In this document: in pieces, positions 15,698-34,690 of the stretch | How the letters are laid out: every line of letters begins with the position of its first letter | Numbering within the stretch: position 1 is the first letter of the stretch | Assembly (NCBI GenBank): GCA_015179125.1 | Contig: WHVA01000084.1 | Coordinates: 124,001-188,000 of the forward strand | Source: Gautieria morchelliformis | Taxonomy: Eukaryota; Basidiomycota; Agaricomycetes; Gomphales; Gomphaceae | Reading direction: 5' to 3' | DNA length: 64,000 bases | Position numbers and translations under genes: made by a program | The notes under the pieces: generated by a model | Databases searched by the model: none | What the model was told of the DNA's origin: nothing | What the model saw: the letters and a program-made list of their open reading frames with translations, nothing else

Positions 15698-15951
15698 CGT
15701 GCTTCATCCGTACTCAGTGTTGCCGCGGCGCGGCTTTGGCTTAGCGCCAAGCGACGCTTACCAAAGCCGGTTATTATAATTATGCTCTAAGCCAAGCCGA
15801 GGAACCGCAGCTTGGCTTGGTTAAAAACCGGCTTTTAGCCGCAAGCCGAATATAGCTAAGGGGAGATACCGGATTATTAATACATTATTTTATCGATGTT
15901 CTAAACCTTCGGTATATACATGATAGTCTCTCTCATGTTCTATGGTATCAG
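15698..15951. other. Intergenic between F-box promoter and KDZ element
   Basis: No gene is seen. A GC-rich stretch at about 15720-15850 has repeated GGCTTTGGCTTAG/AAGCCAAGCCGAGG words in both orientations and can fold back on itself. It resembles the blocks near 10928 and 11255. Confidence 0.35.
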
Positions 15952-16117
15952 TATGGTGGCACCTGTACCTTACACTAGCGCTTGCTATTTAGGTGGCGAC
16001 AGCCGGTGTGTAGTCCCGGCCTAATACGGCCTCGTTCGAGAGGTAAGCTATGACGCGAGACCAATCTCAAGAAAACCTTCACCCCGTAGTAATATTGCGT
16101 GACTGATCCTTGAGATA

Positions 16118-19100
16118 CAGTCGCGGACAACCAAAGTCCACCAACTTAGTAGCCAGTGACTGAGAGATTTGGGGGGTAATCTGACTTCAGATTCGGACTC
16201 AGGAATGCAAAATACGTCGAAAAACACTCCTTTGGAATTTTTCCCACGAGGATTTCAGCCGGCCAAATTTTTGGACAAAAATTTCAAAAATTTAACATAT
16301 AAAGGGTCATTTATTCGGTGTCTAAAGTAGGTACATGTCAGTTGCGGCTGACAATTGCATCAAGATGCATCATAGCACTGCGTGAGACTGTACGATGGCC
16401 CTTTTGTTTTCTAACGGCCCATGCTGCTGCCTGCCCTGTCAGGCCAATCCTGTAAGCACTCATGAACCGCCAGGCTCTGTTGATAAAACATCGGATGACA
16501 TCCACCAGGCAAGCATTGAGAGCAGCAAATGCTGCTTTTATGGCATCATCGAAGGTTCTCTTGGGCACTTGCCGATATCTGTACTTCACCCACCCCCAAT
16601 ACTTAGACAATGTGAATAAGTTGACAAATTACCAATTGAAGTAAAAGTAAATATTACCATTTCAATGGGATTGAGTTCACAGTGGAACTTTGGGAGGAAT
16701 ATGCATTCATGCCCAGCCTCTTTTATGAGTGTTTCAAGCATAGACACCTGGTTTACAAAGTCATCTTGCTGGCTAAGCAGTCGAGCCATGCAGCACCATT
16801 GACTCTTGAATGGACAGACAGGGGAACACTTTGCCTTGAGACCTTTAATATTAAACCCACGTTCTGTAAGAGTCTGTTCCAGGCCTTTCTGTTGGCCATC
16901 ATCAGTGGTCATTCTCTGTACTTTGCCACGGAGTTCAGGTGTGGGATTGTTGTGTGGAATAATTGTATCCTTCTGATGCCGTTGCTTGCCACCATTGCTT
17001 TTATTCATTTCAAATGCCTTGAGTGCATCTGGTGGCAGCGCCGTATGTGCAGATGACTGATCAAATATAAAAAGGGCTTGACAGCCAGGGTGTGCCGCTT
17101 CGAATGTTGGAATTGCTGAAGATTTCACTTGCTCAATGAGTTGAGCACAATCCCAGTATGGATCTGCATTTGAACCAGGAAAGATGACCTTGCGTGCACT
17201 GGAGGAAATGCTGCCATCGTCATTGAAAGAAACCAACCGTCCGTTCACCTCCTCTATGAAGTCTGAGATGTGAATCAGCTGACCATTTCCTTTTTTCTGG
17301 AGGATTTGTTCACCCTTCTGTAGCCTGACATGGTTGATTAGATTCAAGTATAAGAATTAAATATACATACATACCAGGTAGAACCTTTGAAGTCATTTTG
17401 TTGACAGCAGCTCTCATCGTGAAACTCAGCAATGAGAAGCCTTTCACCTGGCTGAAGTTTGGGTTCAACTTGCTTCAGCTCAGGCCCCTCAAATTTAATC
17501 ATCCGTTGTTCATATTTCTCCATCATTGGGAGAAAAACCTCATTCCGATACTTGACAACGTCAGCCCTCTCGTGGCCATCCATATACACCCCTTTTTGCA
17601 AGATGGTGCGTGTCCAGCCAAGCTTCACCAACCACCTCTGTGAAGTCCTCTCGCAGAGTGGTTTCTTCAAGGTAATATTCAGGGAGGGGAGAATCTGTGA
17701 GTTGAGGGCATGGCAGAAGAGCTGAGGGGTGATTGAGCCAATGCGCTGTTCTGTAAGCCATGTTCTTGCCGCAACTTTGACAGCCTCATCTTTTAATAGA
17801 GACTGTGAGTTCTTGCTGCCACCCCTGGATTCAATAGGGAGCTGCTCAAATACTTGACAATGGTGTGCAAGACCTCTGATACGGCGTGCAAAATGTTCAC
17901 TGGATCCACCCTGCTTTTCATGCCACTGTGCTGCAACCTCCCTGCTTGAAGTGATCCAGCCATGACCCTTCAACTGAAGTGTGGCAAAATTACGAAGGAT
18001 CATTAGCTGGTTGATGTCCTTCAGTGGCATATGTGCATGCTTTTTTTTCAAATCATCTTTGACTTGATCTCGCAAGTCCTTCCAGCCACGAATATTCACC
18101 AATGGCCTCACCATGTCTGTAACCTCATCTTCCCATGGCGCTTCTTCTCCAGCTGTGTCCCCTTCACCTCCTTCTTCACCTCCTTCTCCAGCTGTGTCCC
18201 CTTCGCCTCCTTCTTCGCCTCCTTCTCCAGCTGTGTCCCCTTCACCTCCTTCTCCACCAGCGTCCCCTCCTTCTTCAGCCTCACCATCGCTGCCACTTCC
18301 ATCCTCTGTGCTTCTCTCCTTTTGCTTTCGGGACGTTGCAACAGGAGTAAGGTCTTCAAAGGAAAGTGGTGGAGGAGTAAGGGACTCTTGGTGAATCTGG
18401 ATAGGAGCCGTGGCAGGTGCTTCAGAGCGGTCCACAACAGGCAGGCACGTCACATAAGTATCAAGAGTTTGCTGACCCTCTAACATGGAACGATAACGAC
18501 GCCGAGTGCGTTCTGATTTACTGCCGACATCTGGGCCTTTGACATATTGTTTGGGACGAGCTGCGCAACAAAGGTTGGCCTATTTTTGAGTGCGGCAGAA
18601 ACTTATAACTCACCTTTTTTATCCATCAATCGCTTCATCCTCTTTCTCTTTGACGCTTCTGGCATCCAATCCTCATCACTCGGATCATCACCATTTGCCA
18701 CGGCAAATTTCAGGAGTCTCGCATGCAAAACATGCTCCTCCTCCCCCAAACCCAGCCATCCAGTGTCAGAATTGACTGACCCGTCGTCTTCGTCGTTCAA
18801 CTCCTCCGATTCCTCCCAGTTTGGCCGCAAACTGTCGTTCTGGTGAGCTTCCCAGGCTGGGTCATCTTCCTCTGTGCTGCTGGGATCAGTAGAAAGAGCA
18901 GCTGCTGAATGAAGCAGGGACACCTGGGAGGGTGCATCCACAGGTGAGACAACTTGCTGGGCTTGGTTTCGAAGCCCAGTGATATTACGCTTTTGTTTCT
19001 TGCCTCGCATGCGTCAAGCTGGCCAAATCACGTGAGTATGTTATGTAATGTAATATTAAAATAATTATTTCACCTGCATCCGTCGTGGAAATTTTTTTAT

Positions 19101-19353
19101 TTCTTCAGAATCAGATTCAGCTTGAAGAAAGCTATCGATTCCGCTATTTTCTATATTTTTAGCTATTTTTTTGGTGTCCGGCCAAATTTTGAAGGGCCAA
19201 ATTTTCAAATAGCACGTTCTGAGGAATCGGCTCGTGGAAACCTGCCCGTAAGGACCTAAATAGACTCTATCTAGGCTTAAAATGATATTCTAATGCGGGT
19301 GGGGTGCCCATAACTGGTTAATTTTTTTAGTGGACTTTGGTTGTCCGCGACTG
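16118..19353 (-). mobile_element. Tc1/mariner-like DNA transposon G (3236 bp), looks whole
   Basis: Perfect inverted ends of 24 bp start CAGTCGCGGACAACCAAAGT, with TA on each side (16116-16117 and 19354-19355). It encodes one transposase on the minus strand with an uninterrupted spliced frame. It sits inside the left inverted repeat of F, so it arrived later. The untouched right repeat of F shows the original site with a single TA. Confidence 0.93.
16338..19010 (-). CDS. Tc1/mariner-like (IS630 superfamily) DDE transposase
   Basis: Inferred exons on the minus strand are 19010-18614, 18560-17375, 17324-16658 and 16601-16338, giving 2514 nt and 837 residues, open throughout, with introns of 50-56 bp. 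The acidic N-terminal half holds three tandem 13-residue repeats (GGEGDTAGE core, 39-bp DNA repeat at about 18145-18270), then a DNA-binding-like region (CERTSQRWLVKLGW). Catalytic candidates are Asp in FHDESCCQQND, Asp in FIFDQSSAH and Glu in HCELNPIEM. Between the last two lie 132 residues, far more than the 34-41 of most Tc1/mariner enzymes. A C-terminal block (FINRAWRFMSAYRIGL) follows. The length is more than twice the usual ~340 residues. This long type occurs widely in mushroom genomes, but I cannot name its clade with certainty. Confidence 0.88.
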
Positions 19354-19776
19354 TAGGTCCAGGCTCCCAAAAGGTCACATGACCGGTCCATTGTGTCAAA
19401 GCCAAGACCTACCAGCCTAAATTTAGCAACGAAGTAGATAGCCATAATAGGATATGTTCAGCCCATCGCTAGTAGTCCCTCCTCACCGCTGCACACGACG
19501 GCAACCTATAGAGGCCATCCCCTTGTCTCAAAAAAACCCTAATAAATCTTAAAAATATTCGCGTCTGTCATTCAATTCCCACAGAGCTGATCCGGCGTCA
19601 CAAGGAAGTGCATGCTCGCTGTTGCACACGACGAGCATGCAACTTTGCTCTACAGCTTCCGGAAAATTATGAAAAATCACCAGAACAAATGATTTTTATG
19701 ACTAACAACTTATCACATTCAAAATTCATCATTAAGAACTCTGTGTTGGGGTAAAAGGGACTGCTGCCATCCCTTC

Positions 19777-21254
19777 TCAGACATCAGCAATAACCTCAGC
19801 CTCCTCCCCCTTCTTTCTCTTTCCTTTGCTCTTGCCGTTGCCTCGACCGTTACTCTTTACCTTGTCCAATGGCTCATTCTCTTTATCAGTTCTTGCCTTA
19901 GATTTCTTCGTCGGCTGTGCTGTGATATCGTCTGTCGATTTGCGCTTCTTTGAAGCAGTTTTCGAGTTCTGCCCTCCACGGGGCACATAAGGATCTTCCC
20001 CGGCATTGAGCCTTCGCAAATTCCCTGCCTTGCGAGTGTCTTGTTCTTCCTGGGTAAGGCGTACCCAATGACAAGTTCCCTCACTAAGCGTGGCATGGAC
20101 TTTATTTAAGTTGGCAATCCGGGTGATCTTTGAAGGGTTCGCGAACAGGATGTCCTTGGGCCAGCCAACCAAGTCAATGCCATGGGCTTCAACAAGCAGC
20201 CGTTAAAACTGAACATATTCCATATCCAGATCCGCCCCAGCTGCTGCAGCTAAAGTGACAAATTAATAAGTAAAATGGACATCTATCAATCAGAACGTAC
20301 CAAGGCCAGTTCTAATCAACTGCCGTATTTTCAGCCTTAGTTCACCAAGCCGCTCATTGTGATTTAGTACCACTCCTAAGAATGTTAACAAATCAGCTGT
20401 TATGTGGTGCAGTAGCAGTGATAGGTCAGGTCCTTCTTACCTTCGGCACTTCGCAGTGTGTACATTTCGAATTCCCTTGACACCCTATCGGGGTCAAGTT
20501 TGAGAATGTTGACAAGGAATGACTCAGCCTTAGGCGTCATGATCACCGTCCCATCTTGGTGATGCTCATCTTTACCTTTGACCGTAAACATGAATACCTC
20601 TGTTGAGGTGCGAGCATTGAGATGATGCAACTAGAGATACCAATTAGCACAAGGAGATAGCTGAATGAAAATGAGTGCACCTCTTCTTCTATGCTAGTCA
20701 ATACATGACGGGTGTCATGGAGTACACCTATGGGGCGAACATGAGGAGCCGTGTGGACATGGGCTCATGTGGCTGTCAACCTGTTCGTAAGCAGCTCGCG
20801 GTCCTCTGCAACCAAGTCCTTGGCAAATTCTGGGCCACCAAGCCCTCGGATCCTCTCAACGACAAGTTTGATACGCTCATAGTCTTCAGGTGAGATTTCC
20901 AAGTCTGTCCTGAAGTCAGTGTACCGCTATACATGTACATTATTGGATACTCTTACCCTGTTTCTCATTTTCCTTTTCTACCAGACAAATGGCATGTTGT
21001 GCCCCATTGAAGATGTTAGGGCTTCTTTTCATCCGGGAGAAACGTCCCCCTTGATGGACTTGCTCGAGGAAATATCTAGTGCTCTTCTTGTGTTCCAATG
21101 CGAGACGAGCCACCTCTCTGTCAACCATATCAAGGACCTCATTAACTGAATCACGGATATTCTGTCGTCTCGTCTCGGCGGCCTTTGAGGCAACTTTACG
21201 CTGCTGATACGAGAGGTTCTTGGATGGCCCTTTATGGGTTTTCAGGCGTGCCAT
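19777..21254 (-). pseudogene. KDZ-element accessory gene 2 (unassigned), with in-frame stops
   Basis: A multi-exon gene on the minus strand. The first exon (21254-20957) encodes a basic, helical start (KASTRRQN-like, residues around VASKAAETRRQNI) and ends at a clean donor. Later exons read through EISPEDYERIKLVVERI (about 20880), HHLNARTSTEVFMF (about 20625) and LVGWPKDILFANP (about 20165), ending in a Lys/Arg-rich nuclear-type tail (KKRKSTDD, KGKRKKG). At least two in-frame stops are visible, a TGA near 20767 (AT*AHV) and a TAA near 20204 (VQF*RLL). Similar proteins accompany KDZ transposases in mushroom genomes, to my recollection. The function is unknown. A DNA-binding or targeting role is only a guess from the basic ends. 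Confidence 0.6.
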
Positions 21255-21395
21255 TGGTGTGGCGAAGGTGTGTTGGGAGATGTCTTCATGGTTTAAACCA
21301 AATTCACAGGCACGTGACTTGCAATAAAATAAAAGTGATCCAAACTCAATTCAAGACTATCAATTTCATACAAGTTTCTAGATAACTATTCCCAA

Positions 21396-22871
21396 TTAGA
21401 TCGCATCGTCAGTGGCAATGACAGTCTGAGTCAGTCTGACAAGGTCATCTATTTTATCAGATGGGATGTGCAGTACTCGCTCCATGTGGTTAAACATATC
21501 AGGCGTCCAAGAAGCCTGCTGTAGACAACCTACCGCATTCGTAAGAACCTTCTGGCTACTGTAGATCCTGTAAGTCTCCAAAAACTCCACCAGGGACGTT
21601 ACAGCCATCTCGTTGGCATGTAAGGCTTCAATCCTACCAAGATCGACTTCCTGCATTGCAGCCAATGTCTTGGCATCGTAGAATTCGTCCGAGCTTGATG
21701 GACTAGGGGCCTCGGCTGGGATGAACTGGCTGGTGCGGTATGCATTCAAGGACTCGTGGAAAGAGCATGTAGGTGTCTGTGGATTCAGGGGCACATAAGA
21801 GTGGCTGGCACCTTTGCCGGCAAAGTTTGAGGACATAGGAGGGTAGGCATTGAGAGACTGGTGGGATGAACGAGAGGGGGTAATAGTTGTCAACTCAGGT
21901 TGTCGGCTGTGGTGGGATGAACGACCAGGTGTAATAGTTTGTAACTCAGGTTGTCGGCTCTGGTGGGATGAACGAGAGGGAGCAATAGTTGGTGACTCAG
22001 ATTGTCGGTCTCGTGTGTGGGAGTGAGAAAACCCTATGGAATGTACATTAGCAAATGCTGCAACATGAACATGAAACTTACGTTTGAAGTATCCTGTATT
22101 TACAGTTCGCCGCTCCCACTCCTTAACCCAGGGAATAGCAAGTGTGGTCACGAAACGAGCACCAAGGTCATCTATAGCCTTGGAGACCAAATTGTCAGTC
22201 TTCAGCTTATGGTCGAACCAATCGGACACCCCAATAACTAGGTTCTTGCGCAGGGTGGCTGCGTCCAATTGGTCTCCAGGACGGCATTCTGGGTGTAGTG
22301 AGAAGAGAATGCATGCTGAACCGCTGAGGCGGCTGTAGATGGCACACTAGCCACTTCTGTTAGTGTGCAACCCTAAATGAACAAAATAATTCTTACTGCG
22401 TCATCAATGTCTTGAAGGGCAATGGCGCGGTATTGCCTGCGCTCATCAGCATTGGAAATCCAACCCATTGGAAGCTCTTCAGCACTCATTCCAAAATTGT
22501 ACGAAGCTCCCTGGCCAAAGCGACGTCGCGCCCGTTCTACGGCCAGATCCAATGCGTCCACTGTTCATGGCTCATTCTCCTGCCATTTTCGTAGGGCGGA
22601 TGGATGGGAGTGCTGAGGGTGGGTCGTGAAATCTGGATCAACTGGGGAGTGTTGGCAGAACGAGACGGATAAGTCTTCCAGAGCATATCGAGGTTCCAGA
22701 CAGCCTTGTTTGGTGAACACAACCGCCCACATGGACCAACATAGGTAACTACACAGCCGGGATGGCATTGGAGCTCCTTAGTAGAAATATAATAAATAAT
22801 TGGTTACCCCTGCAAGTCTTCAAATGCGATGTCTGGAATTTGGCAAAGAGGCTAATTTCACCATTCTCCAT
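21396..22871 (-). pseudogene. KDZ-element accessory gene 1 (unassigned), one in-frame stop
   Basis: The likely start is ATG at 22871 (MENGEISLFAKF), with an intron near 22805-22770. The frame then runs to 22565, meets a TGA at 22562-22564 where the context (ENEP*TVDALD) suggests a lost Trp, and continues through RARRRFGQGASYNFGM. A further intron lies near 22380-22315, then comes DAATLRKNLVIGVSDWF. After another intron (about 22080-22034) a Ser/His/Gln-rich stretch contains three copies of a 16-residue repeat (TITPSRSSHQSRQPEL type, about 22000-21840). The C-terminal ~100 residues are helical. I recognise no domain. It lies between the transposase and accessory gene 2 on the same strand. Confidence 0.55.
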
Positions 22872-23364
22872 TGTGTTGGAGTAACAAACACATGACTGCC
22901 CAAACACGTGACTACCTGTGCGTGATGCCGCAAGCTCGTTTGTTCTCTATATTTAGGTATATGCATCTCTGTTATGAGACACCCCTTTTGTTTTCTCTTT
23001 TATTCAGACAATTGTGATAGAAACTATAAGTAACAATAGTTAGGACCACTTTCCTCAGTCGTTTGACATGCCATCGTGTCCAAACACTGAGGTAAGAAAC
23101 TCTTACACTTACTATGTATTTCCCATATTCACCTGTACACTATAGATTACTGCATCAGGTGAATAAATAGTCGTTTGACACGCCATCACATCCAAATACT
23201 GAGATTACTGTATCAGTTATTGCGCAATATTTACACATTGCAGTGTCACAGTTAACATGGCAATGGACAGGCGCATTGTATGCGCTTTCAATAATGAAAT
23301 CACGACTCATGCTTTATAGACAAGAACAGCCTGGCATGCATTGTGCATTGCAAGTAGAGACTAA
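22872..23364. other. Intergenic region inside KDZ element with a direct repeat pair
   Basis: This is the gap between the transposase end and accessory gene 1. A 34-bp word (core TCGTTTGACATGCCATC..CCAAACACTGAG) occurs at about 23057 and again, slightly changed, at about 23170. The stretch likely holds the promoter of accessory gene 1. No coding frame is seen. Confidence 0.45.
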
Positions 23365-26300
23365 CTAAGTAATGAGATCATTCATTGATAAACTGGAGAT
23401 ATAATCCTCCAGACGAGACATTTCTTCATTATCCTCATTATCCTCATCCTCATCCTCATCGTCCTCACGTGCTTTGGCTACTCCATGATGCATAGCCTGG
23501 GAGGATGAAGGTAGCTTTATCGTTATTCGTGTAGTACCCAGTTGTGTACCAATCTCGGAGGAACCTGTGTAACCTGGTAAGGCAAACAAGGCCATGAGCT
23601 TATGTCGGTGATAGTCATTGAGCCGTCGCCAAGTTTGGAGCTGCTCCTTAAGCTCTTCGCACAACAGTGGTTTGTGGGCCTGGAGATTATGGATCTGTAT
23701 TTCGTATTCTGTTTCGCTATCATGGATCCAAGTGTTCAACCGTGCCACCTCCACATTCAACCGAGCTATTTCTTCTTTTGCACATTCCAGTCGCAAACTA
23801 TATATTGTCACTTGGCGATTGACTGTGTCAGCCCACGGAAGCTTACGGATGTCCTCTCGTGCTGCTGAGCACAATAAGTCAAATTCTGCCAGGGTACCAT
23901 ATTCAACGACTTCCTGCCATTCGAGCCGGGGTCATGGAGGAACTAGCTTGGCGGCTGCTTGATTATAACGCTTGAGAGCTGACTGGATAGCTTTGCATCG
24001 TGTCTGCAATGATTTGCTGATGTGTACCCACAGCTTGTACCCTGTATTGTATTAGCTTGGATCCTATCACAACATTGGCAATTACGCACCAGTGCCAGAC
24101 AAATTGGCCTTTGTGAGCTCAAACAGGCATTGTACAACTAGGCCTTCAAGCTTATCAACTGCTAGCTGGTACTCCCGAATCTTGTTGTAGCTCATGGCCA
24201 TCTCCCATTCATGGCATCCAGGAGTCCAGCGTTCAGCGATATCAAGAGTTTCTTCTATAGACATAACTTCCTTTTGCAGGAACTCATAGGCCTCCCATGC
24301 CTGTTGACGAATAGCTCTTACACAACTCGTGGGTGGTGTAAACTGGCAAGTTGCATCGAATGTATGCCTTCACTCTAAGTTAATGCCTGAAAAAAGTGAA
24401 CCAAGGAATAATAACATACTTTGCTAGCTGCATCTTTGTGAGAACCGTCACATATTGGCCCCTGGCTATATCACTGTCCGGCTCGATCTCTTTTGAAGCC
24501 AAATAGGTACGTTCCTGGTCCAGCCATTTCTGATAGTGTGTCGGCCACAGACTGATAACCAGTCAGTGCTGCAATTGCAACAGGCATGTCATGAATAAGA
24601 CCAAGAGCTTGAACATAGTTGTTGTATAGGAATGTCGCTGCTCGTGTAATTATAGACTGCTGGAGAAACACTAGATGATGCTACTTACATAGTAGTTCAT
24701 ATTTATCTTCATCGTGTTGGCGAAAATACATATCAATTGCCTGATGGCGATGGAATCGTGAAGTGTGGCGTATAGCACTTGCAAGCGCATTGGAACCCTT
24801 GAAGATACGTTCACATACCTCCAAGTCTTCGATGCCAAACCCGTGCAGATACAGGGGATGCCACTGTAACTGGCATCTCCGATTGTGTGCATATCCATGG
24901 AAAGCTGGTACTACAAAGCGGAGCTGTTTCTCTTGCGCATGTGCACCCAGCGAGCTGTTTTTGACAGTTGTGGCGAAAGAACAAGCGATGTCATACCCGA
25001 TGGCCAGATTTGAGTCATACACTTCAATGATCTTGTTGAGGTGAGCCAGGGGGTACTTTGCCCTGGGTGAACATGTGAGTATAAATATTAGGATTTGAAT
25101 TGCATACCCACAATTCCCCGCTACGGACCATGTCTGCAATGAGAATGATAAATCCATGGCGGCATGCAGATAAAAAAAATGCCTGATTCATCAAATTCCT
25201 TGTAAGTGGCCTTGACAGCATCAGCATTTGCTGCCTTCCATCGGTCAGTGCATGTGGTATCTCCATACGTTGTATCCACCTGCTCGGCCTCCTGCCACAG
25301 AGTTGGACCTTTTGCCTTAGGGCGTTTCCTAACTTCATCCTTGAATTGATCAACCTGATCAACGGTGAGATAGTAGTCGCTTAGAAATGGCTTGTTGATA
25401 TCTTGGCGACCAGACCGGTGCGAGCCGTTTCAGCGAGTTGCTACCATCGAGAGCAAGAAGCATTGATGGCTGAAGCTCGGTCTCTCCATTGAGCTGGTCT
25501 AAGGGTAGATCATCAATTCCTTCTTGGCCACAGTTTGGCACTAACCTTGTGACAGCATGGGGACACATGTGCTTCATTCGCCAATTGGGTGTATCATGGG
25601 ACATAATTGCTTTTACCTTTGCATCTACATGTCGTAGTAGATCTAAGTATGTATCGAATGCCCGAGTGAATTGCTCCCGCAAGTAGCGTCGATAATTAAT
25701 CTAGAAAAGAGCGGTCAATGACATTGGGTGTGATAACCAAAGAAAGGAATACCTTGCAGACATCACAAAGAACTCTTACCCATACCTGGATACTCACGTG
25801 GGGACTTCGAAGACGCAGCCGACGAAATACCTCAAGTGTCGCAACTTCAAATGCCATCGACGGGTCGACAGGATTGCAGGAGATAATGCCATAGTGGATG
25901 AGTGTGACACTGATGTGAGAGACTCCGGAGATGTGGCTAAATTCTCGTTCCATGCAAGCTTCCAATGCAAAGGTGAGCAAGTGTCGACATTGATTCAGAG
26001 ACTTACCGCCAATTCCCATAACACTCAAAATAAATTTCCCTCCACTAGTTTCTATGCGAGTTCCTCCGTGCTTCCAAAGTAAGTAGGCATCTGCTAAGGC
26101 AGGCATCTGTGCCTGCCATGCCTGATCTCGTCGATGTATCGCTTCTGCCCAAGTGCGCCCGTCTTTTTGCTTTATATAGAGATTATTTGAGATAATGGAG
26201 TCTAAGAACAACGTGGAAAGGCTAACCTCATTCTAATATGCCGGTCATATTCACAAGTAGCCAAATACTCGCCTCCCTCATGGCTAATCTCTCGATTGTT

Positions 26301-26756
26301 ATCAGGGCAGCCAATACCATCGATATTTTCGACCACATCTTCCCAGCCGCCCATCATAGTCTCATCATGGGTGCTGCGACCTATGTCTTGAGATACCTGT
26401 TCCAATGCGCGGCGAGTCGATTGATGAAGATCTTGACTTCGGCTCAGTAAGTCTTTCCTGTATATTAGGCATGGAACATCACCTTGATTATATTCTTGTC
26501 TCTTCTCGTCCCATCGTTCTGCGCTCACTCCAAGTTTGGCTCGCATGACCCGCTCATGTAAAATGCCTGTTCGAACAGGTGGCCGTGCACCTTCGCCAAG
26601 GGTGGTAACTTGATGGCGCACCCCGAGACGACTAATCTTGACACCTTGACTCAATTTGCTCTTAACCTTTCGACGGTGAGGAGCTGGTCTGAGCGCAGGC
26701 ATCGGCGCAAGAGAATCCAGGTATGGGATCACGTGATTGATGATTGATCTGCACAT
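23365..26756 (-). pseudogene. KDZ (Kyakuja-Dileera-Zisupton) transposase
   Basis: A minus-strand multi-exon gene starting at ATG 26756 and ending at a stop at 23365. Diagnostic stretches in order are WAEAIHRRDQAWQAQMPALA (about 26140), HDTPNWRMKHMCPHAV, LLALDGSNSLKRLAP (first catalytic Asp), FLSACRHGFIILIADMV, IGYDIAC (second Asp), FHGYAHNRRCQL, CERIFKGSNALASA (catalytic Glu region), then DIAERWTPGCHEW, LVVQCLFELTKANLSGTG and ARLNVEVARLN, ending in an Asp/Glu-rich tail. These match the KDZ transposase family. One in-frame TGA near 23935 replaces an expected Arg in a VPPRPRL-type motif, so this copy is probably inactive. I saw no TET/JBP dioxygenase beside it, although KDZ elements and TET/JBP genes are known to be associated in mushrooms. 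Exact exon borders were not fixed. Confidence 0.88.
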
Positions 26757-26827
26757 GATGCGTGTTCAAAGAAGACAATAATATCTTGTGAATCGTGTGA
26801 TGCCTAAATCAGAGCTCATTGGATGTT

Positions 26828-27316
26828 ATAAATCATTTGTTCTGGTGATTTTTCATAATTTTCCGGAAGCTGTAGAGCAAAGTTGCATGCTCGTCGTGTG
26901 CAACAGCGAGCACGCACTTCCTTGTGACGCCGGATCAGCTCTGTGGGAATTGAATGACAGACGCGAATATTTTTAAGATTTATTAGGATTTTTTTGAGAC
27001 AAGGGGATGGCCTCTATAGGTTGCCGTCGTGTGCAGCGGTGAGGAGGGACTACTAGCGATGGGCCGAACATATCCTATTATGGCTATCTACTTCGTTGCT
27101 AAATTTAGGCTGGTAGGTCTTAATGGACCGGTCATGTGACCTTTTGGGAGCCTGGACCTATCTCAAGGATCAGTCACGCAATATTACTACGGGGTGAAGG
27201 TTTTCTTGAGATTGGTCTCGCGTCATAGCTTACCTCTCGAACGAGGCCGTATTAGGCCGGGACTACACACCGGCTGTCGCCACCTAAATAGCAAGCGCTA
27301 GTGTAAGGTACAGGTG
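26828..27316. repeat. Right terminal inverted repeat of KDZ element F
   Basis: An uninterrupted ~489-bp arm, the reverse complement of the two-part left arm, ending GGTACAGGTG before the TATGGTGG duplication. It preserves the TA site into which G inserted on the other side. Confidence 0.9.
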
Positions 27317-27324
27317 TATGGTGG

Positions 27325-28929
27325 TTTGGCTAGAGCACCGTATCTGTACCAATCATTGAAGTAATATTAGTAATATAACCTTCCGTTCATTAGTGATTCA
27401 TTTCGCGAGGACAACACTGCCCGTGAAAGCCCGGTACGAATGGAAGGTCGCTGTCATCGTCGCTGTTTATACCGTATCGTAGCGGCGGCGGCTGCCGCCC
27501 CAGTCCCCAACTCTCTCCAACTTTAAATGCGTCAGAGCTTAAAAAACCGAATCAGTAAAGTTCTTTCTGTCCATGAAATTGAAGCCAGACCACCGTAAGA
27601 CAGTAAAATACAAGGAGTACAACTGAAGGGTGGGAGAATGGGAGAGTAGACGAAATAACTAGAGTGGGGGAAAGAAACGCTCTATGAAATAGGTGTGCCG
27701 TGAGGCAGTGGACGGATGAGGTGGCGTTTGGCGGTCAGGACGATGTCGTGCTTAGAGCTGCGTTCCAGAATATTGCAATGGCCATGGGAAATGCAGAACA
27801 AGGGCCACCTTGTGCGGAGTAGTGTTTTGTCTTAAATTCTACAATGAGTCAACTCAACCGTATATTTACGCAGTCATCCTGATAGCGTCGTCATGTCCAG
27901 TCATCATGGTATATAGCAATCAACGTACCAGATATAGGAGTTTTCTTGCGTCCATCTCCGACTTTGAGGGACGTTCATCACTTCTTTATCCAGCAACGGA
28001 CAGGGAGACATCTTGTTATTAGATATCTTCAGTAATCAGATGCTCTGGGATAACAACATCCTTCTGGGGACTGACATTGCAAATCGTGAGTATGATTACA
28101 AGGCTCAGGGTGAGGTCATCAGGAAGATGGACAACACCGTGTATGATGTGGATGAGTGCACCTGTATCAGGAGGTTGTGCATGGGGAGAGGTCTTATGCG
28201 TGAGTACTGTATCCCTTTTGTTTTGCATGACCCTCAGTCTGTTTCCTGCATTCCCTGTTGGGATGGGAAATCGCCCAATGTGCCGTAAAGGACGGCAAAT
28301 ACAGATGGAGGTGACGGAGGGGGCTCATAGAACAGACAGGTAGATAAGGGAAGGGTCAGGGCACGGAAAGAAAGCCCAGGGTGAAGACAGCGCCGAAAAA
28401 GAAAGGACGTCGGAAACAGGGCGAAAGAAACACCCATCCGAACGCCATGCCAAAAAGGGATGTGTAGAGATCCCACTATGCAAACGAAGGATGGGAAGGG
28501 GTGGGGACGGGATGACAAAGAAAAAGCGGGGCAGGCCAGGCAAACATTTCAAGAGTGGGGATACATTTTACTCCCCCGTGAGACACAGAGAAACCAACCC
28601 CCCCCCCCTCTAAAATGACAGGCCTCCACAGAAAAAACCGCTAGGAAGGGCCATCCAATTAAATGAATACGAATGCACCCGCATAACGGTGATCACAGTT
28701 ATTCGCGCTCGTGCAACCCTCCCTCTCCTTTGGAGAGAGTCAGGGACCGTATTTCACAGCTGTATATGTTGAGCTCATTGCTGTATATAATCTCATTTGG
28801 AGTTACATTATTCTTAAGGAGGTCATCTGGGACAGTTAAAATATTGCCCGGGCCTCAAATTTAGTATATCCTCAAGGTGAAAGCCATGACTCACTGGTAG
28901 TGAGATTGCTTCCAAATGGCCACGAGGGA
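27325..28929. other. Unassigned stretch right of the KDZ element
   Basis: Only short frames, none with recognisable motifs or convincing splice support. A plus-strand frame at 28013-28288 has a few Cys and Asp residues but no family signal. A run of C near 28602 and purine-rich tracts (28340-28560) suggest noncoding sequence. Confidence 0.4.
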
Positions 28930-29109
28930 GAATGACGATAGGAAGAACAAGAGCAGGATGGGGTGGGTCATTCAAGGATGATGGGGTGGTATGAGTTCAA
29001 TGGGAAGAACAAGAGCGGGATCCGGTGGGATGTTCGAAGATGAGGGGCTGGGTATGAGTTTGATGGGAAGAACGAGAGCGGGATCGAGTGGGCTGTTCAA
29101 TGATGAGGG

Positions 29110-29640
29110 AACCGGGCATGCGGCGCTGAACAAGCACCTACACAAAATGGGGAAGGCAGACTCACCCATGTGCCCAGCCTGCGAGAAGGCAGAGGAGACG
29201 GTATATCACTACCTTTTCAGATGCCCAGGGTACAAAAAGCACAGACAGGAGCTACAGAGGGAGCTGCGAAGAGGAGCTACGATGGCTACAACTATACTGG
29301 GAAGACCGAAGGCGATGAAACACCTACTCAGGTTTATACAAGCCACCAGGAGATTCGCTAAGACGCATGGGGAGCTGACATTGCCGCCGCAACGGGAGGA
29401 CAGCAAGAAGTAGGCAGAGGAATTGTGGAGCAAGCAGGGAGAGGCATGAAGAATAGAAAACCTCGCCAACCAAAGGCATGGACAAGCTTGGGGCTTCGCC
29501 CGCAGAGCACAAGTGGAGATAGAGGCAGAAAGGGCAGAAAGAACAATCCTGTTGACCAGGGCTTTGTAGGAAATTTGTCTTACATAGGGCCTTGCCCCAA
29601 AAGACATAAAATTGGATATAAAAAATAAAAATAAAATAAA
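29110..29640 (+). mobile_element. 5'-truncated LINE (531 bp)
   Basis: Flanked by the 11-bp duplication AATGATGAGGG (29099-29109 and 29641-29651) and ending in an A-rich tail of TAAAAATAAAA type. The plus-strand frame reads GHAALNKHLHKMGKADSPMC, then CPACEKAEETVYHYLFRCP, a Cys/His cluster found at the C-terminus of fungal LINE ORF2 proteins. The frame runs to a stop at 29411-29413, and everything upstream of this end is missing, as is usual for aborted reverse transcription. Confidence 0.88.
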
Positions 29641-29881
29641 AATGATGAGGGGCTGGGTATGACTTCAATGGGAAGAACAAGAGCGGGATCAGGTGGGTCA
29701 TTCAAAGATGAGGGGCTGAGTATGAGTTCAATGGGAAGAACGAGAGTGGGATCAGGTGGGTTGTTCGAAGATGAGGGGCTGGGTATGAGTTCTATGGGAA
29801 GAATGAGAGTGGGATCGGGTGGGTCGTTTGAAGATGAGGGGCTGGGTATGACTTCGATGGGAAGAACGAGAGCGGGATCGG

Positions 29882-31225
29882 TGTCATGACGCGTTTATTT
29901 CCCATACTCAGATGCCCCGTTCTCCCATTTCTCACTCCACCTCCATGTTTGTTCCGATCGCCCTTGCCATGTTCAGCAACCGATCTTCGCTGTTCGCGCC
30001 ATTTACCATAGAGGTCCTGATTGGAAACAGGTTCATAGCTGAGCAGAGGGACTATGACCCTGTTCAAGAGAGGCAGATGGCTGATGAGCTGTCAAAGCAC
30101 AATCGACGTCTTTGGACTGACTTGGCAGTCATCGCTGGGCCTATCACCTCCTCTGCTCAACCCTCTTTCAATGGTGTTCCTATGATCGGATTGTCATGAC
30201 TTGTGTATCTCCTGCACCTTGTTATCCCCATTTCCCCTTTCGCCACTCCTCCCCCATGTTCGCTCGGCTTCACCCTCCACCTCAACCACTCCTGCCCTAT
30301 GTCATCTCCGTTAGCCCTTCCTCGCATTTCGCCGAACAGCCATTCGCTGCTCGCATCATTCGCCAGCAGGCACACCATCAAATCATGATCGATATCCCTA
30401 CCCGGCATGATGGCTCGTCAGTAGCTCTATCAGCTTCTCAGTCCAACCCCCTTTTGGTGTTCATATGATCAGGGTGCGTTCGCGGGACGTCCTACCTGTA
30501 GGTCGTGTGGGTTCAACCCAGCAGATGAAGAACCCGTGCAGGGCAGTGTATATGCGGGCCCCAAGACATGATTTCGTACATAGGTGCCTTCGCCACCTTT
30601 ACTCTCCGTCGTTTCGTGTTTGCACTCTTCCCTTACTCTATTGTATGTTTATTCCATCTACTTAGTATCATGACTGCGCACCCCTATCCAACCCTGACTC
30701 ACAACGGCCTCTTTCCTATTCGCTGATACCTTACGAGCATTTGATATAAGTAGTTTACATTCGCATGTATATTCTCCAGTTCAATTATCATATGTCGTCC
30801 ATCTTGTGCAAACTTGACCTCACTGTGATCATCATTTTGAGCCTTCTCCTGGAGATTTCTATCTTCGACCAGAAGAGTACTTAGGCATCACTGGTGAGTT
30901 CTCATACTTCATCTTCATTACCTTAGCCTTCGAACTATTTTCTGTGCTGACGGCGAAGGGCTCTGAAGGAGCACCTTCGCTGGCGAAGGGATTGTCGCTA
31001 CCTAGACAACCCTTCAGTGACACCTTGTATGTTACATTGTCAAGTGCCACGGGCTATTTCGCTATGACTGTAGATAGGGCGAGCTCCGCTCAGGGAGCCC
31101 TCTTATCTTGTGAACATTTATTGGTTCACCTATTCACCAAACGGCATACTTATTTGCACAAGTCATTTGGGCATTTGCTGTGTTCACTAATACACGATAT
31201 TAACGCCTAAAAACCAATCTTGACA
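29882..31225 (+). mobile_element. Solo LTR I (1344 bp) with internal duplication
   Basis: Starts TGTCATGACGCG and ends AATCTTGACA, flanked by the perfect 5-bp repeat ATCGG (29877-29881 and 31226-31230) within the minisatellite. From about 30194 to its end it matches solo LTR J (32379-33409) in inverted orientation. The first ~312 bp look like a diverged second copy of the LTR start (a second TGTCATGAC begins at 30194). No protein domain is seen. Confidence 0.85.
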
Positions 31226-31555
31226 ATCGGGTGGGTTGTTTGAAGATGAGGGGTTGGGTATGACTTCAATGGGAAGAATGAGAGTGGGTCGAGTGGGCTG
31301 TTCAATGATGAGGGGCTGGGTGTGAGTTCGATGGGACGAGAGCAGGATCGGGTGGGTTGTTCGAAGATGAGGGGCTGGGTATGACTTTGATGGGAAGAAC
31401 GAGAGCGGGATCGGGTGGGTTGTGCGAAGATGAGGGGCTGGGTATGAGTTCGATGGGGTGAGAGTGTGTCGAGTGGGCTGTTCAATGATGAGGGGCTGGG
31501 TATGAGTTCGATGGGAAGAGCGAGAGCAGGATCGAGCCGATTGTTCAATAACCAA

Positions 31556-32102: not shown

Positions 32103-34690
32103 TTAAGATTCCTCCCCCCATTCATCACAGCCCTTGAAAACAAACCCTTCAAGCTCTATATCTGTCGAGTCCTTCCCAGATCCCCTACTAGGCTCGCCAT
32201 CGGTTTCCTGCGCATTCCCATCCTTGTCAGCCAATATATCCAGCTGTTGATCAAATGCACTGTGAGGCTTATGTGCACATACTGAGTATCCCTGATCTTG
32301 CCACTCATTTTCCTGCTCTATGTCCTTCTCCTCCCATTTCCAGCTAGCCGTGAAATCTAGCCGGGCCTTCTTGATCATTGTCAAGATTGGTTTTTAGGCG
32401 TTAATATCGTGTATTAGTGAACACAGTGAATGCCTGAATAACTTGTGCGAATAAGTATGCCATTCGGTGAATAGGTGAACCAATAAATGTTCACAAGATA
32501 AGAGGGCTCCCCGAGCGGAGCTCGCCCTATCTACAGTCATAGTGAAATAGCCCGTGGCACTTGACAATGTAATGTACAAGGTGTCACGGAAGGGTTGTCT
32601 AGGTAGTGACAATCCCTTCGCCAGCGAAGGTGCTCCTTCAGAGCCCTTCGCTGTCAGCACAGAAAATAGTTCGAAGGCTAAGGTAACGAAGATGAAGTAT
32701 GAGAACTCACCAGTGATGCCTAAGTCCTCTTCTGGTCGAAGATAGAAATCTCCAGGAGAAGGCTCAAGACGATGATCACAGCAAGGTCAAGTTTGCACAA
32801 GATGGACGACGTATGATAATTGAACTGGAGAATATACATGCGAATGCAAACTACTTATATCAAATGCTCGTAAGGTATCAGCGAATAGGAAAGAGGCCGT
32901 TGTGAGTCAGGGTTGGATAGGGGTGCGCAGTCATGATACTAAGTAGATGGAATAAACATACAATAGAGTGAGGGAAGAGTGCAAACATGAAACGACGGAG
33001 AGTAAAGGTGGCGAAGGCACTTATGTACAAAACCATGTCTTGGGACCCGCATACATGCTACCCTGCACGGACTCTTCGTCTACTGGGTTGATCCCGCACG
33101 ACCTATGGAAGGGACGTCCCACAAACACACTTTGGCCATATGAACACCCAAAGGGGTTGGGTTAAGAAGATGATGGGGTTAGTGATGAACCATCATTCCG
33201 GGTAAATGGTATCGATTGTATTTGATGGCGAGCCTGCTGGCGAAATGTGCGAGCTGCAAATAGCAGTTCGGAGAATGGGGCGAACAGTGAATAGAGTGGA
33301 CGTAGAGGAGGAGTGGTCGGAGGGTGAGGCGAACTCTGGCGAAGATGCTAGGGAGTGACGAGGGGAAACATAGAGGCAGTGGGGTAAGAGAAATAGACAG
33401 GTCATGACAATCATGAACTTCAGCATCTGCAGCTGTTCCATCAGATGTGGTGAGATGCGGTTTCTTCGACATGTATCCGTCTCCATGCTAGAAGAGAAGA
33501 TGTGCTCGGCAGGGACAGATGATGCTTGTGCTGGGAGATAGTCGAGTGCCCAACAAGATAGCCATGGGTAGTTTCCCTCATTGTGCTACAGGGTGGTTAT
33601 GGTTAGAAGTCAAATGTCAAACAGGAGCCTAAGTTATTACGCACATCCCACCATTTGATTAGATCAACACTGTATATGTCAGGCCAGTTAGCAGCGTGAC
33701 AATATGAATCCCATTCTTCTTCAACCAACAGTAAACGTGAAGTGCACCCTGTTGGAGACTCATCAATTTCCCGGCCAAAAAGCAATGTGTAAGCATTGCA
33801 CGACACGCCTGGTTGGTGTATTGTCTCCCTGGTAGATTAAGCGGCTGGTTGACTCTCATCATATTTTGCAAGCTAAACAATGGTCAGGTTTTGCTGGAGG
33901 GCAGATAGCGTAAAAGTCACCTCTAATAGAATTGTTTGTTTAGCATACGAAACCTGAGTGATGGATGAAGGACTAGCAAAGGCTTGGTTAGCAATTGATT
34001 TAGTAACAGCTTGCCACATACCAATAGAAATAATATGTGGCTTTGAAAAGTGATGCTCGTTATACTGCAAGGTCATCTTTTCAACTGCCGCATCAATCAT
34101 CCTTCATAGGTGCGCATTCTAACGCTCCTTGCGCATGCGGGTCCAAGTAGATAGTAGTGAGTCGAATGCAGGGAGTACGCAGGCAAGAATAGGGGTGTGC
34201 TTGGTACACATGACGGCTTGTAAAGCATGAGCCGGCTGCGGGTATAATAAGCATGGCCCCTACATTAAACAGAGAACATGACCTACCTCTAATATATTCT
34301 TTATATCCTTCAGTATGGCCCATTCATTGTTGGTGAGTCGTTGCTTGAAGATGGTACTCATGACCGGTGGCGAAATATAAACTTCAATTGCCTAATACGA
34401 ACTTTAGCGTTTTCATACTCATCAATAGCATAATTACTTACATGACGAAAATACAATGCTCGTTCAATCATTAGATACGACGATCCCCATCAGGTTGGAC
34501 TATCACAAATAAGGGTGAGATGTGCATGCTGGTAAGATACCTGTTGAGAATCTAGCCAACGTTCTCAATGGTTTCCAGTTGTAACAATCTCCTTGAATTC
34601 TTCATGGCGGAGTTGGGAGGACCGAATCATGTTAGCGATGTTACGAGTAATCGCAACTGGATCACGCTGTAAAGCCTGTGTGGGTGTTTG
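32103..34690 (-). pseudogene. hAT transposase remnant, split by solo LTR J
   Basis: The minus-strand pieces include IRSSQLRHEEFKEIV (about 34600), LTLICDSPT and SSYLMIERALYF (about 34500), ILACVLPAFDSLLSTW (about 34190), and the hAT C-terminal dimerisation motif (WALDYLPAQASSVPAEHIF, then RRNRISPHLMEQLQMLK, about 33540-33415). After LTR J the frame continues KKARLDFTASWKW to a stop at 32103. The N-terminal zinc finger part is missing. A TGA in the DSPT*WG motif (near 34495) and a TAG or TGA near 34560 break the frame. Introns are likely, for example near 34270. The relic ends abruptly where the GC-rich host fragment starts. Confidence 0.8.
32379..33409 (-). mobile_element. Solo LTR J (1031 bp)
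   Basis: In plus orientation it starts TGTCAAGATTGG and ends GGTCATGACA, with the 5-bp duplication ATCAT at 32374-32378 and 33410-33414. It is the inverted match of solo LTR I from 30194 onward. It lies inside the C-terminal part of the hAT transposase frame, which runs on uninterrupted on its other side. Confidence 0.88.

What the first reader, a model, noticed from the sequence alone, without database searches (positions are those of the whole stretch)
15960..27316. Complete KDZ transposon with 8-bp target duplication and ~0.49-kb terminal inverted repeats
Both ends, the inverted arms and the TATGGTGG duplication can be read directly, giving exact borders for an 11.36-kb element (about 8.1 kb without its nested insert). 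Fungal KDZ transposases are common, but whole elements with defined ends and cargo are less often described. This copy gives a reference for the family's termini in this lineage.
Basis: partly seen in the sequence, partly recalled or inferred. Interest (0 to 1): 0.75.

Follow-up and report, generated by a model that had tools for sequence, protein, structure and literature searches.

The report
Complete but dead fungal KDZ transposon
This is a jumping gene of a known fungal kind whose exact ends are confirmed by sister copies and by uninterrupted target sites in the same genome; the copy here is decayed, and its supposed cargo is a second gene that tends to travel with this kind of transposase.

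Summary
Window 15960-27316 is one KDZ DNA transposon with inverted ends (501 and 490 bp), tip CACCTGTACC and the 8-bp duplication TATGGTGG. The same genome has four further full-length sites: three with perfect 8-bp duplications (one split between two contigs), one with 7 of 8. The element landed in a 0.4-kb repeat; 17 of 17 fetched copies of that repeat lack the element and carry one TATGGTGG at the site. Cleaner copies are about 8.16 kb with 505-508-bp ends. The window copy is 67 substitutions away; 30 of its 41 C-to-T changes are at CpG. Both its genes carry frameshifts or stops, and a 3.2-kb element with TA duplication sits in its left arm. The "cargo" is a second gene without a Pfam match; at 12 of 23 other loci its relatives lie within 10 kb downstream of a KDZ transposase on the same strand, at none in the other order or strand within 10 kb. 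Two contigs appear misjoined at this repeat. New member of a known kind; the linked second gene is the least ordinary part.

The parts
15952..15959 (.). left 8-bp target-site duplication TATGGTGG
15960..16117 (+). left terminal inverted repeat, outer piece (158 bp, ends with the TA at which the nested element sits)
16118..19353 (.). nested 3,236-bp element with TA duplication (TA at 16116-16117 and 19354-19355) and inverted tip CAGTCGCGGACAACCAAAGTCCAC; absent from the five sister versions
19356..19698 (+). left terminal inverted repeat, inner piece
19735..22686 (-). second gene of the element (modelled exons, about 868 aa in copy C626, basic C-terminal tail, no Pfam match above cut-off); here 1 of 6 exons checked has a frameshift and the last exon has two in-frame stops
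23365..26702 (-). KDZ transposase gene (8 modelled exons, about 986 aa in copy C626); here 3 of 8 exons are frameshifted and the last exon has an early stop
24681..25187 (-). frame with the second half of the KDZ domain (PF18758, profile 99-217, E 1.2e-47)
26827..27316 (-). right terminal inverted repeat (490 bp in this copy; 505-508 bp in C992, C626 and C251)
27317..27324 (.). right 8-bp target-site duplication TATGGTGG

Best explanation
A two-gene KDZ-superfamily DNA transposon that inserted here, most likely by cut-and-paste, into a 0.4-kb repeat. The transposase is taken to bind the roughly 0.5-kb inverted ends, cut out the element and join it to 8-bp staggered target cuts, which gives the TATGGTGG duplication. 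Shown: borders, duplication, ends, KDZ domain, sister insertions, target sites without the element. Inferred: excision, the roles of the two proteins, and the order of events. This copy then decayed, mainly by C-to-T change at CpG (as expected of a methylated, silenced copy; methylation was not measured), lost both reading frames, and took in a nested element with a TA duplication. The other five full-length versions differ from each other by 1 to 5 substitutions in about 8.1 kb, so the family probably moved recently.
For: Identical 8-bp duplication at the tips. Five full-length sites, counting the window: perfect duplications at the window, C626 (AAATGTGA) and C251 (GCGTTGAG); a perfect GCGTCGAT when the left flanks of C503 and C419 are read as the two sides of one site; 7 of 8 at C992. 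17 of 17 fetched paralogous sites lack the element and carry one TATGGTGG. Ends identical over 505/505 bp in C626. KDZ domain 2-217 of 217, E 2.2e-81, in the transposase modelled from C626. 30 of 41 C-to-T changes at CpG, where CpG holds about 17% of cytosines.
Against: C992 has a one-base mismatch in its duplication. C503 and C419 have unlike flanks as assembled. No allelic empty site was found for the window site or the C503/C419 site; three other sites were not tested. In 10 of the 17 paralogous sites the alignment has a gap of 13-15 bases that ends 1 or 4 bases left of TATGGTGG, so those ten are not unchanged copies of the site. Some single-base indels behind 'broken' may be assembly errors, since C419 shows 27 gap openings against C992. 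Exon models come from a simple script, not from transcripts.
Confidence: 0.95

Rival explanations
1. The second gene is captured host cargo, carried by chance, and not a working part of the transposon.
For: No Pfam, NCBIfam or PDB relative gives it a transposition role. 11 of 23 other second-gene loci show no KDZ match within 10 kb; three of these have a KDZ match on the same contig farther off (C374 12 kb and C69 22 kb on the same strand, C204 14 kb on the opposite strand). 29 of 41 other KDZ loci show no partner within 10 kb.
Against: 12 of 23 do, each with the transposase first and on the same strand, at 2.5-8.2 kb, none within 10 kb in the other order or strand; chance per locus is about 0.0017 if loci were spread evenly, which clustered transposons are not. 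At those 12 loci second-gene pieces are 26-40% identical and the best KDZ piece 51-57% identical to this element, which points to long association.
Confidence: 0.12
2. C503 and C419 are real products of exchange between KDZ copies (chromosome rearrangement at the repeats) and not assembly misjoins.
For: C503 changes once from the common type to the window type inside the element and continues with the window's right flank; C419 continues with the right flank of C251.
Against: The elements end 4.3 and 2.2 kb from a contig end; the shared stretches have 0 mismatches and only gaps (5 and 14 gap openings); the two left flanks fit together as one site with a perfect GCGTCGAT; a copy joining the window's left flank with C251's left flank is not among the copies found.
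Confidence: 0.1
3. The duplication is a chance 8-base match and the true ends lie elsewhere.
For: None found; the base before the left duplication is the same as the last base of the element, so one copy alone could be read as a 9-base duplication.
Against: Three further sites with different perfect 8-base duplications end at the same base; 17 of 17 fetched paralogous sites fit.
Confidence: 0.01

Closest known systems
Zisupton and Dileera (KDZ) transposons with 8-bp duplications, as described in Kojima 2025 (PMC12730594; Results part 1 of 3 and passages read)
   Same: KDZ transposase, 8-bp duplication, inverted ends (stated there for Zisupton)
   Different: No TET/JBP domain was found in this element by Pfam; it has a second gene without a named domain. 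Its branch within KDZ was not tested by a tree.
Kyakuja (KDZ), two Laccaria families described in PMC12730594
   Same: KDZ transposase, CA..TG termini
   Different: Those families have 7-bp duplications and no inverted ends; this element has 8 bp and 0.5-kb inverted ends
KDZ1, KDZ2, KDZ3 of Cryptococcus neoformans (PMC12810828, passages read)
   Same: about 9-11 kb, inverted ends of 139-241 bp, 8-bp (KDZ1) or 4-8-bp (KDZ2, KDZ3) duplications, KDZ domain
   Different: Longer inverted ends here (505-508 bp); the CxC1 domain named there is only a sub-threshold match here; 'second gene', 'two genes' and 'additional gene' do not occur in that text

Membership tests
KDZ superfamily | KDZ transposase domain (PF18758) | tested here: met
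   E 1.2e-47 in the window frame; 2-217 of 217, E 2.2e-81 in the modelled protein of copy C626
KDZ superfamily | 8-bp target-site duplication (Zisupton and a Dileera element in PMC12730594) | tested here: met
   perfect at 4 of 5 full-length sites (one split between two contigs), 7 of 8 at the fifth; 17 of 17 fetched paralogous sites
KDZ superfamily | terminal inverted repeats (stated for Zisupton in PMC12730594; absent in two Kyakuja families there) | tested here: met
   501/490 bp in the window, 505/505 bp in C626
KDZ superfamily | cysteine cluster (CxC) of the transposase | tested here: inconclusive
   PF18802 at E 0.01-0.055, below the curated cut-off
Zisupton, Dileera or Kyakuja branch | position in the KDZ transposase tree | not tested
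   no named reference transposases at hand and no tree made; the 7-bp duplications and lack of inverted ends reported for two Kyakuja families are not seen here
TET/JBP-bearing KDZ | TET/JBP dioxygenase gene inside the element | tested here: not met
   no such Pfam match in the frames scanned or in the modelled second protein; a genome search with PF12851 was empty, but so were its controls

The most novel reading that the evidence does not exclude
A lineage of fungal KDZ transposons is a fixed two-gene system: downstream of the transposase sits an undescribed protein of about 870 aa with a conserved C-terminal segment and a basic, probably nuclear tail, needed for transposition or for escape from CpG-methylation silencing in place of the TET/JBP enzyme of other KDZ elements.
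Probability: 0.3. Interest if true: 0.55.

Novelty: new member of a known kind. Interest (0 to 1): 0.34.

Why it matters
It gives exact borders, supported by sites without the element, for a KDZ family with near-identical full-length copies that suggest recent movement, and one older copy that records CpG-biased decay. It also shows that a second gene recurs with this kind of transposase, which gives KDZ work a concrete protein to follow, and it warns that an 8-kb repeat of this kind can misjoin contigs.

Tried and rejected
TET/JBP cargo: no Pfam match in the frames scanned or in the modelled second protein. The genome-wide PF12851 search was empty, but so were its controls, so absence from the genome is not shown. 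Fold of the last exon of the second gene: mean pLDDT 47.9, not used. PDB sequence searches: two weak chance-level matches (E about 1) for a frame of the nested insert, none for a second-gene exon. Bacterial-type promoter scan: one match against 1.1 expected, no meaning for a fungus. Other carriers of the ends: C804, C382, C515 and C255 hold only parts of the element in the stretches fetched; C36 and C163 share only the first 36 bases with this family and then follow another sequence. The right end of the C515 copy was not found at 183-188 kb of that contig, but second-gene matches go on to 194 kb there, so that copy is probably broken up by other insertions; I did not pursue it.

Counts dropped or chosen by hand: in the exon check I used 8 transposase exons (the second lengthened by hand to 1580) and 6 second-gene exons (the last lengthened to 7613), leaving out a 6-bp exon, a 96-bp exon and an improbable last exon of the script's second-gene model, and the transposase tail after about 3970. 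In one search, 17 of the 21 listed matches that cross the junction were looked at; one search scored 40 of 193 candidates. For some searches I entered by hand one row per KDZ locus (47 rows, 41 outside this family, one of them, C167, below the Pfam cut-off) and the second-gene rows. In one search, 11 of 34 merged second-gene loci, those of this family or its relics, were set apart before counting 12 of 23.
Full report
Observation. Window 15960-27316 begins with CACCTGTACC and ends with its reverse complement GGTACAGGTG, and TATGGTGG lies directly outside both (15952-15959, 27317-27324). The inverted arms are 501 bp on the left (split by an insert) and 490 bp on the right, with 4 mismatches and one 11-bp gap. 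The tip is not a chance word: its first 16 bases occur 16 times in 122 Mb, 8 on each strand, against once for the backward-read control.

Sister copies. The genome (122,073,039 bases, 1,113 contigs, unnamed) holds five more full-length versions: C992:260286-268442, C626:59782-67938, C503:81932-90065, C419:105464-113593 and C251:118126-126280. C992, C626 and C251 are 8,155-8,157 bp; C503 and C419 are 8,134 and 8,130 bp. The five differ from each other by 1-5 substitutions, besides gaps. The window copy differs from their majority by 67 substitutions and some indels. The ends of C626 match over 505 of 505 bp; with another setting the ends gave 505/505 for C992 and 507/508 for C626 and C251, but 95.7% for C503 and 97.2% for C419, the two doubtful contigs.

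Target duplications. C626 has AAATGTGA twice, C251 GCGTTGAG twice, the window TATGGTGG twice, and C992 CGCTGCTG against CGCTGATG, 7 of 8. As assembled, C503 and C419 have no matching duplication. But the left flank of C503 ends in GCGTCGAT and the left flank of C419, reversed, begins with GCGTCGAT, so together they look like the two sides of a fifth site; a search with the joined flanks found only these two places. The right flank of C503 is the window's right flank and that of C419 is C251's right flank: from just inside the element to the contig ends, about 4.4 and 2.4 kb, there are 0 mismatches and 5 and 14 gap openings. Inside C503 the sequence changes once from the common type to the window type, between alignment columns 7199 and 7732. 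I read these as contig-end misjoins across an 8-kb repeat; real exchange between copies is a rival at about 0.1.

Empty sites. A query of the two window flanks with one TATGGTGG found no allelic empty site, but the flanks belong to a repeat of about 0.4 kb. Twenty-one of the listed matches cross the junction; 17 were fetched, and all 17 lack the element and carry a single TATGGTGG at the site, at 84.8-92.8% identity. In 7 of the 17 the bases directly beside the site are present on both sides; in 10 the alignment has a 13-15-base gap ending 1 or 4 bases to the left of TATGGTGG. The site itself, with one copy of the eight bases, is there in each. This is independent evidence that the stretch from CACCTGTACC to GGTACAGGTG plus 8 bases was added.

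Transposase. The window frame 24681-25187 (minus strand) matches the second half of PF18758 (KDZ) at E 1.2e-47. A gene model from C626 gives about 986 aa with the whole KDZ domain (2-217 of 217, E 2.2e-81); the CxC1 cysteine cluster, described by Pfam as associated with KDZ transposases, is only a sub-threshold match. The models are from a simple splice-site script, without transcripts.

Second gene. Further along the same strand lies a second gene of about 868 aa with a basic C-terminal tail and no Pfam match above cut-off; the two exons given to NCBIfam and the one given to the PDB had no match. Its exons find relatives elsewhere in the genome. After merging hits into 34 loci and setting apart 11 of this family and its relics, 12 of 23 other loci have a KDZ match 2.5-8.2 kb upstream on the same strand, 0 downstream and 0 on the opposite strand within 10 kb. 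The other 11 have none within 10 kb; three of them have one farther off on the same contig (C374 12 kb and C69 22 kb on the same strand, C204 14 kb on the opposite strand). The chance per locus is about 0.0017 under even spread, an assumption that clustered transposons do not meet. Seen from the other side, 12 of 41 other KDZ loci have such a partner and 29 do not; the searches score only the best candidates, so misses are likely. At the 12 loci the second-gene pieces are 26-40% identical and the best KDZ piece 51-57% identical to this element. So the "cargo" is more likely a standing second gene of one KDZ lineage. Its role is not shown; DNA binding or help against silencing is inference.

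State of the window copy. Three of 8 modelled transposase exons and one of 6 second-gene exons carry frame-changing indels; the last transposase exon has an early stop and the last second-gene exon two stops. Some single-base indels may be assembly errors; the stops lie in exons without indels against C626, so they come from substitutions. Of 67 substitutions, 41 are C-to-T or G-to-A, and 30 of the 41 are at CpG, while CpG holds about 17% of cytosines on both strands. The direction is judged against the majority of the five sisters, not an outgroup. This fits methylated, silenced DNA. No methylation was measured.

Nested insert. 16118-19353 is bounded by TA (16116-16117, 19354-19355) and short inverted tips and is absent from the sisters. 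Its first 583 bases have 21 further matches at 94% identity or more over at least 300 bases among the 42 listed. TA duplication and the general look of its frames suggest a Tc1/mariner-type element (recalled; no Pfam match in three frames and no NCBIfam match in two).

Literature. Kojima 2025 (PMC12730594; abstract, Results part 1 of 3 and passages read) reports 8-bp duplications for Zisupton and for a Dileera element, 7 bp and no inverted ends for two Kyakuja families, and TET/JBP genes in some of them. PMC12810828 (passages) reports Cryptococcus KDZ1-3 of about 9-11 kb with 139-241 bp inverted ends and 8-bp or 4-8-bp duplications. PMC8290104 (passages) says the end motifs of KDZ and Plavaka elements of Marasmius oreades are in its supplement, which I did not see. 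The passages I saw mention no second gene like this one, and no title or abstract start in the listings of searches (20 of 59 shown; 20 of 22 shown) names one. Iyer and others 2014, the founding KDZ paper (recalled), is not held, so a prior description there cannot be excluded.

Verdict. A complete, now defective member of a known superfamily, with borders supported by four sister sites and by sites without the element. Interest is moderate and rests on the linked second gene and the CpG-biased decay, not on the borders.

Noticed in passing
G000:C503:89900-94348 and G000:C419:113400-115828 (L030, L031): Ends of both contigs repeat the flanks of other KDZ copies with 0 mismatches; likely misjoins at the 8-kb repeat, and C503 and C419 are likely neighbours
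   Followed up: yes
window 16118-19353: Nested 3.2-kb element with TA duplication, in many near-identical copies in the genome; no Pfam or NCBIfam match for the frames tried
   Followed up: partly
window 15716-15959 and 27317-27473: The KDZ element sits in a 0.4-kb repeat; at least 21 other copies cross the site
   Followed up: partly
L028:4917-4952 (C163) and L029:4854-4889 (C36): Two loci share only the first 36 bases of the KDZ tip and then another sequence, 85% alike between them over about 320 bases; perhaps a second family using the same tip
   Followed up: partly
L025:8250-8420 (C804): Two copies of the KDZ tip about 114 bases apart around one arm of a 74-bp inverted repeat whose other arm is 5 kb away; unexplained
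   Followed up: no
window 28938-31546 and 32377-33368: Short related repeats, and a stretch of about 1 kb near 30.2-31.2 kb that matches 32377-33368 in inverted orientation at 89%
   Followed up: no
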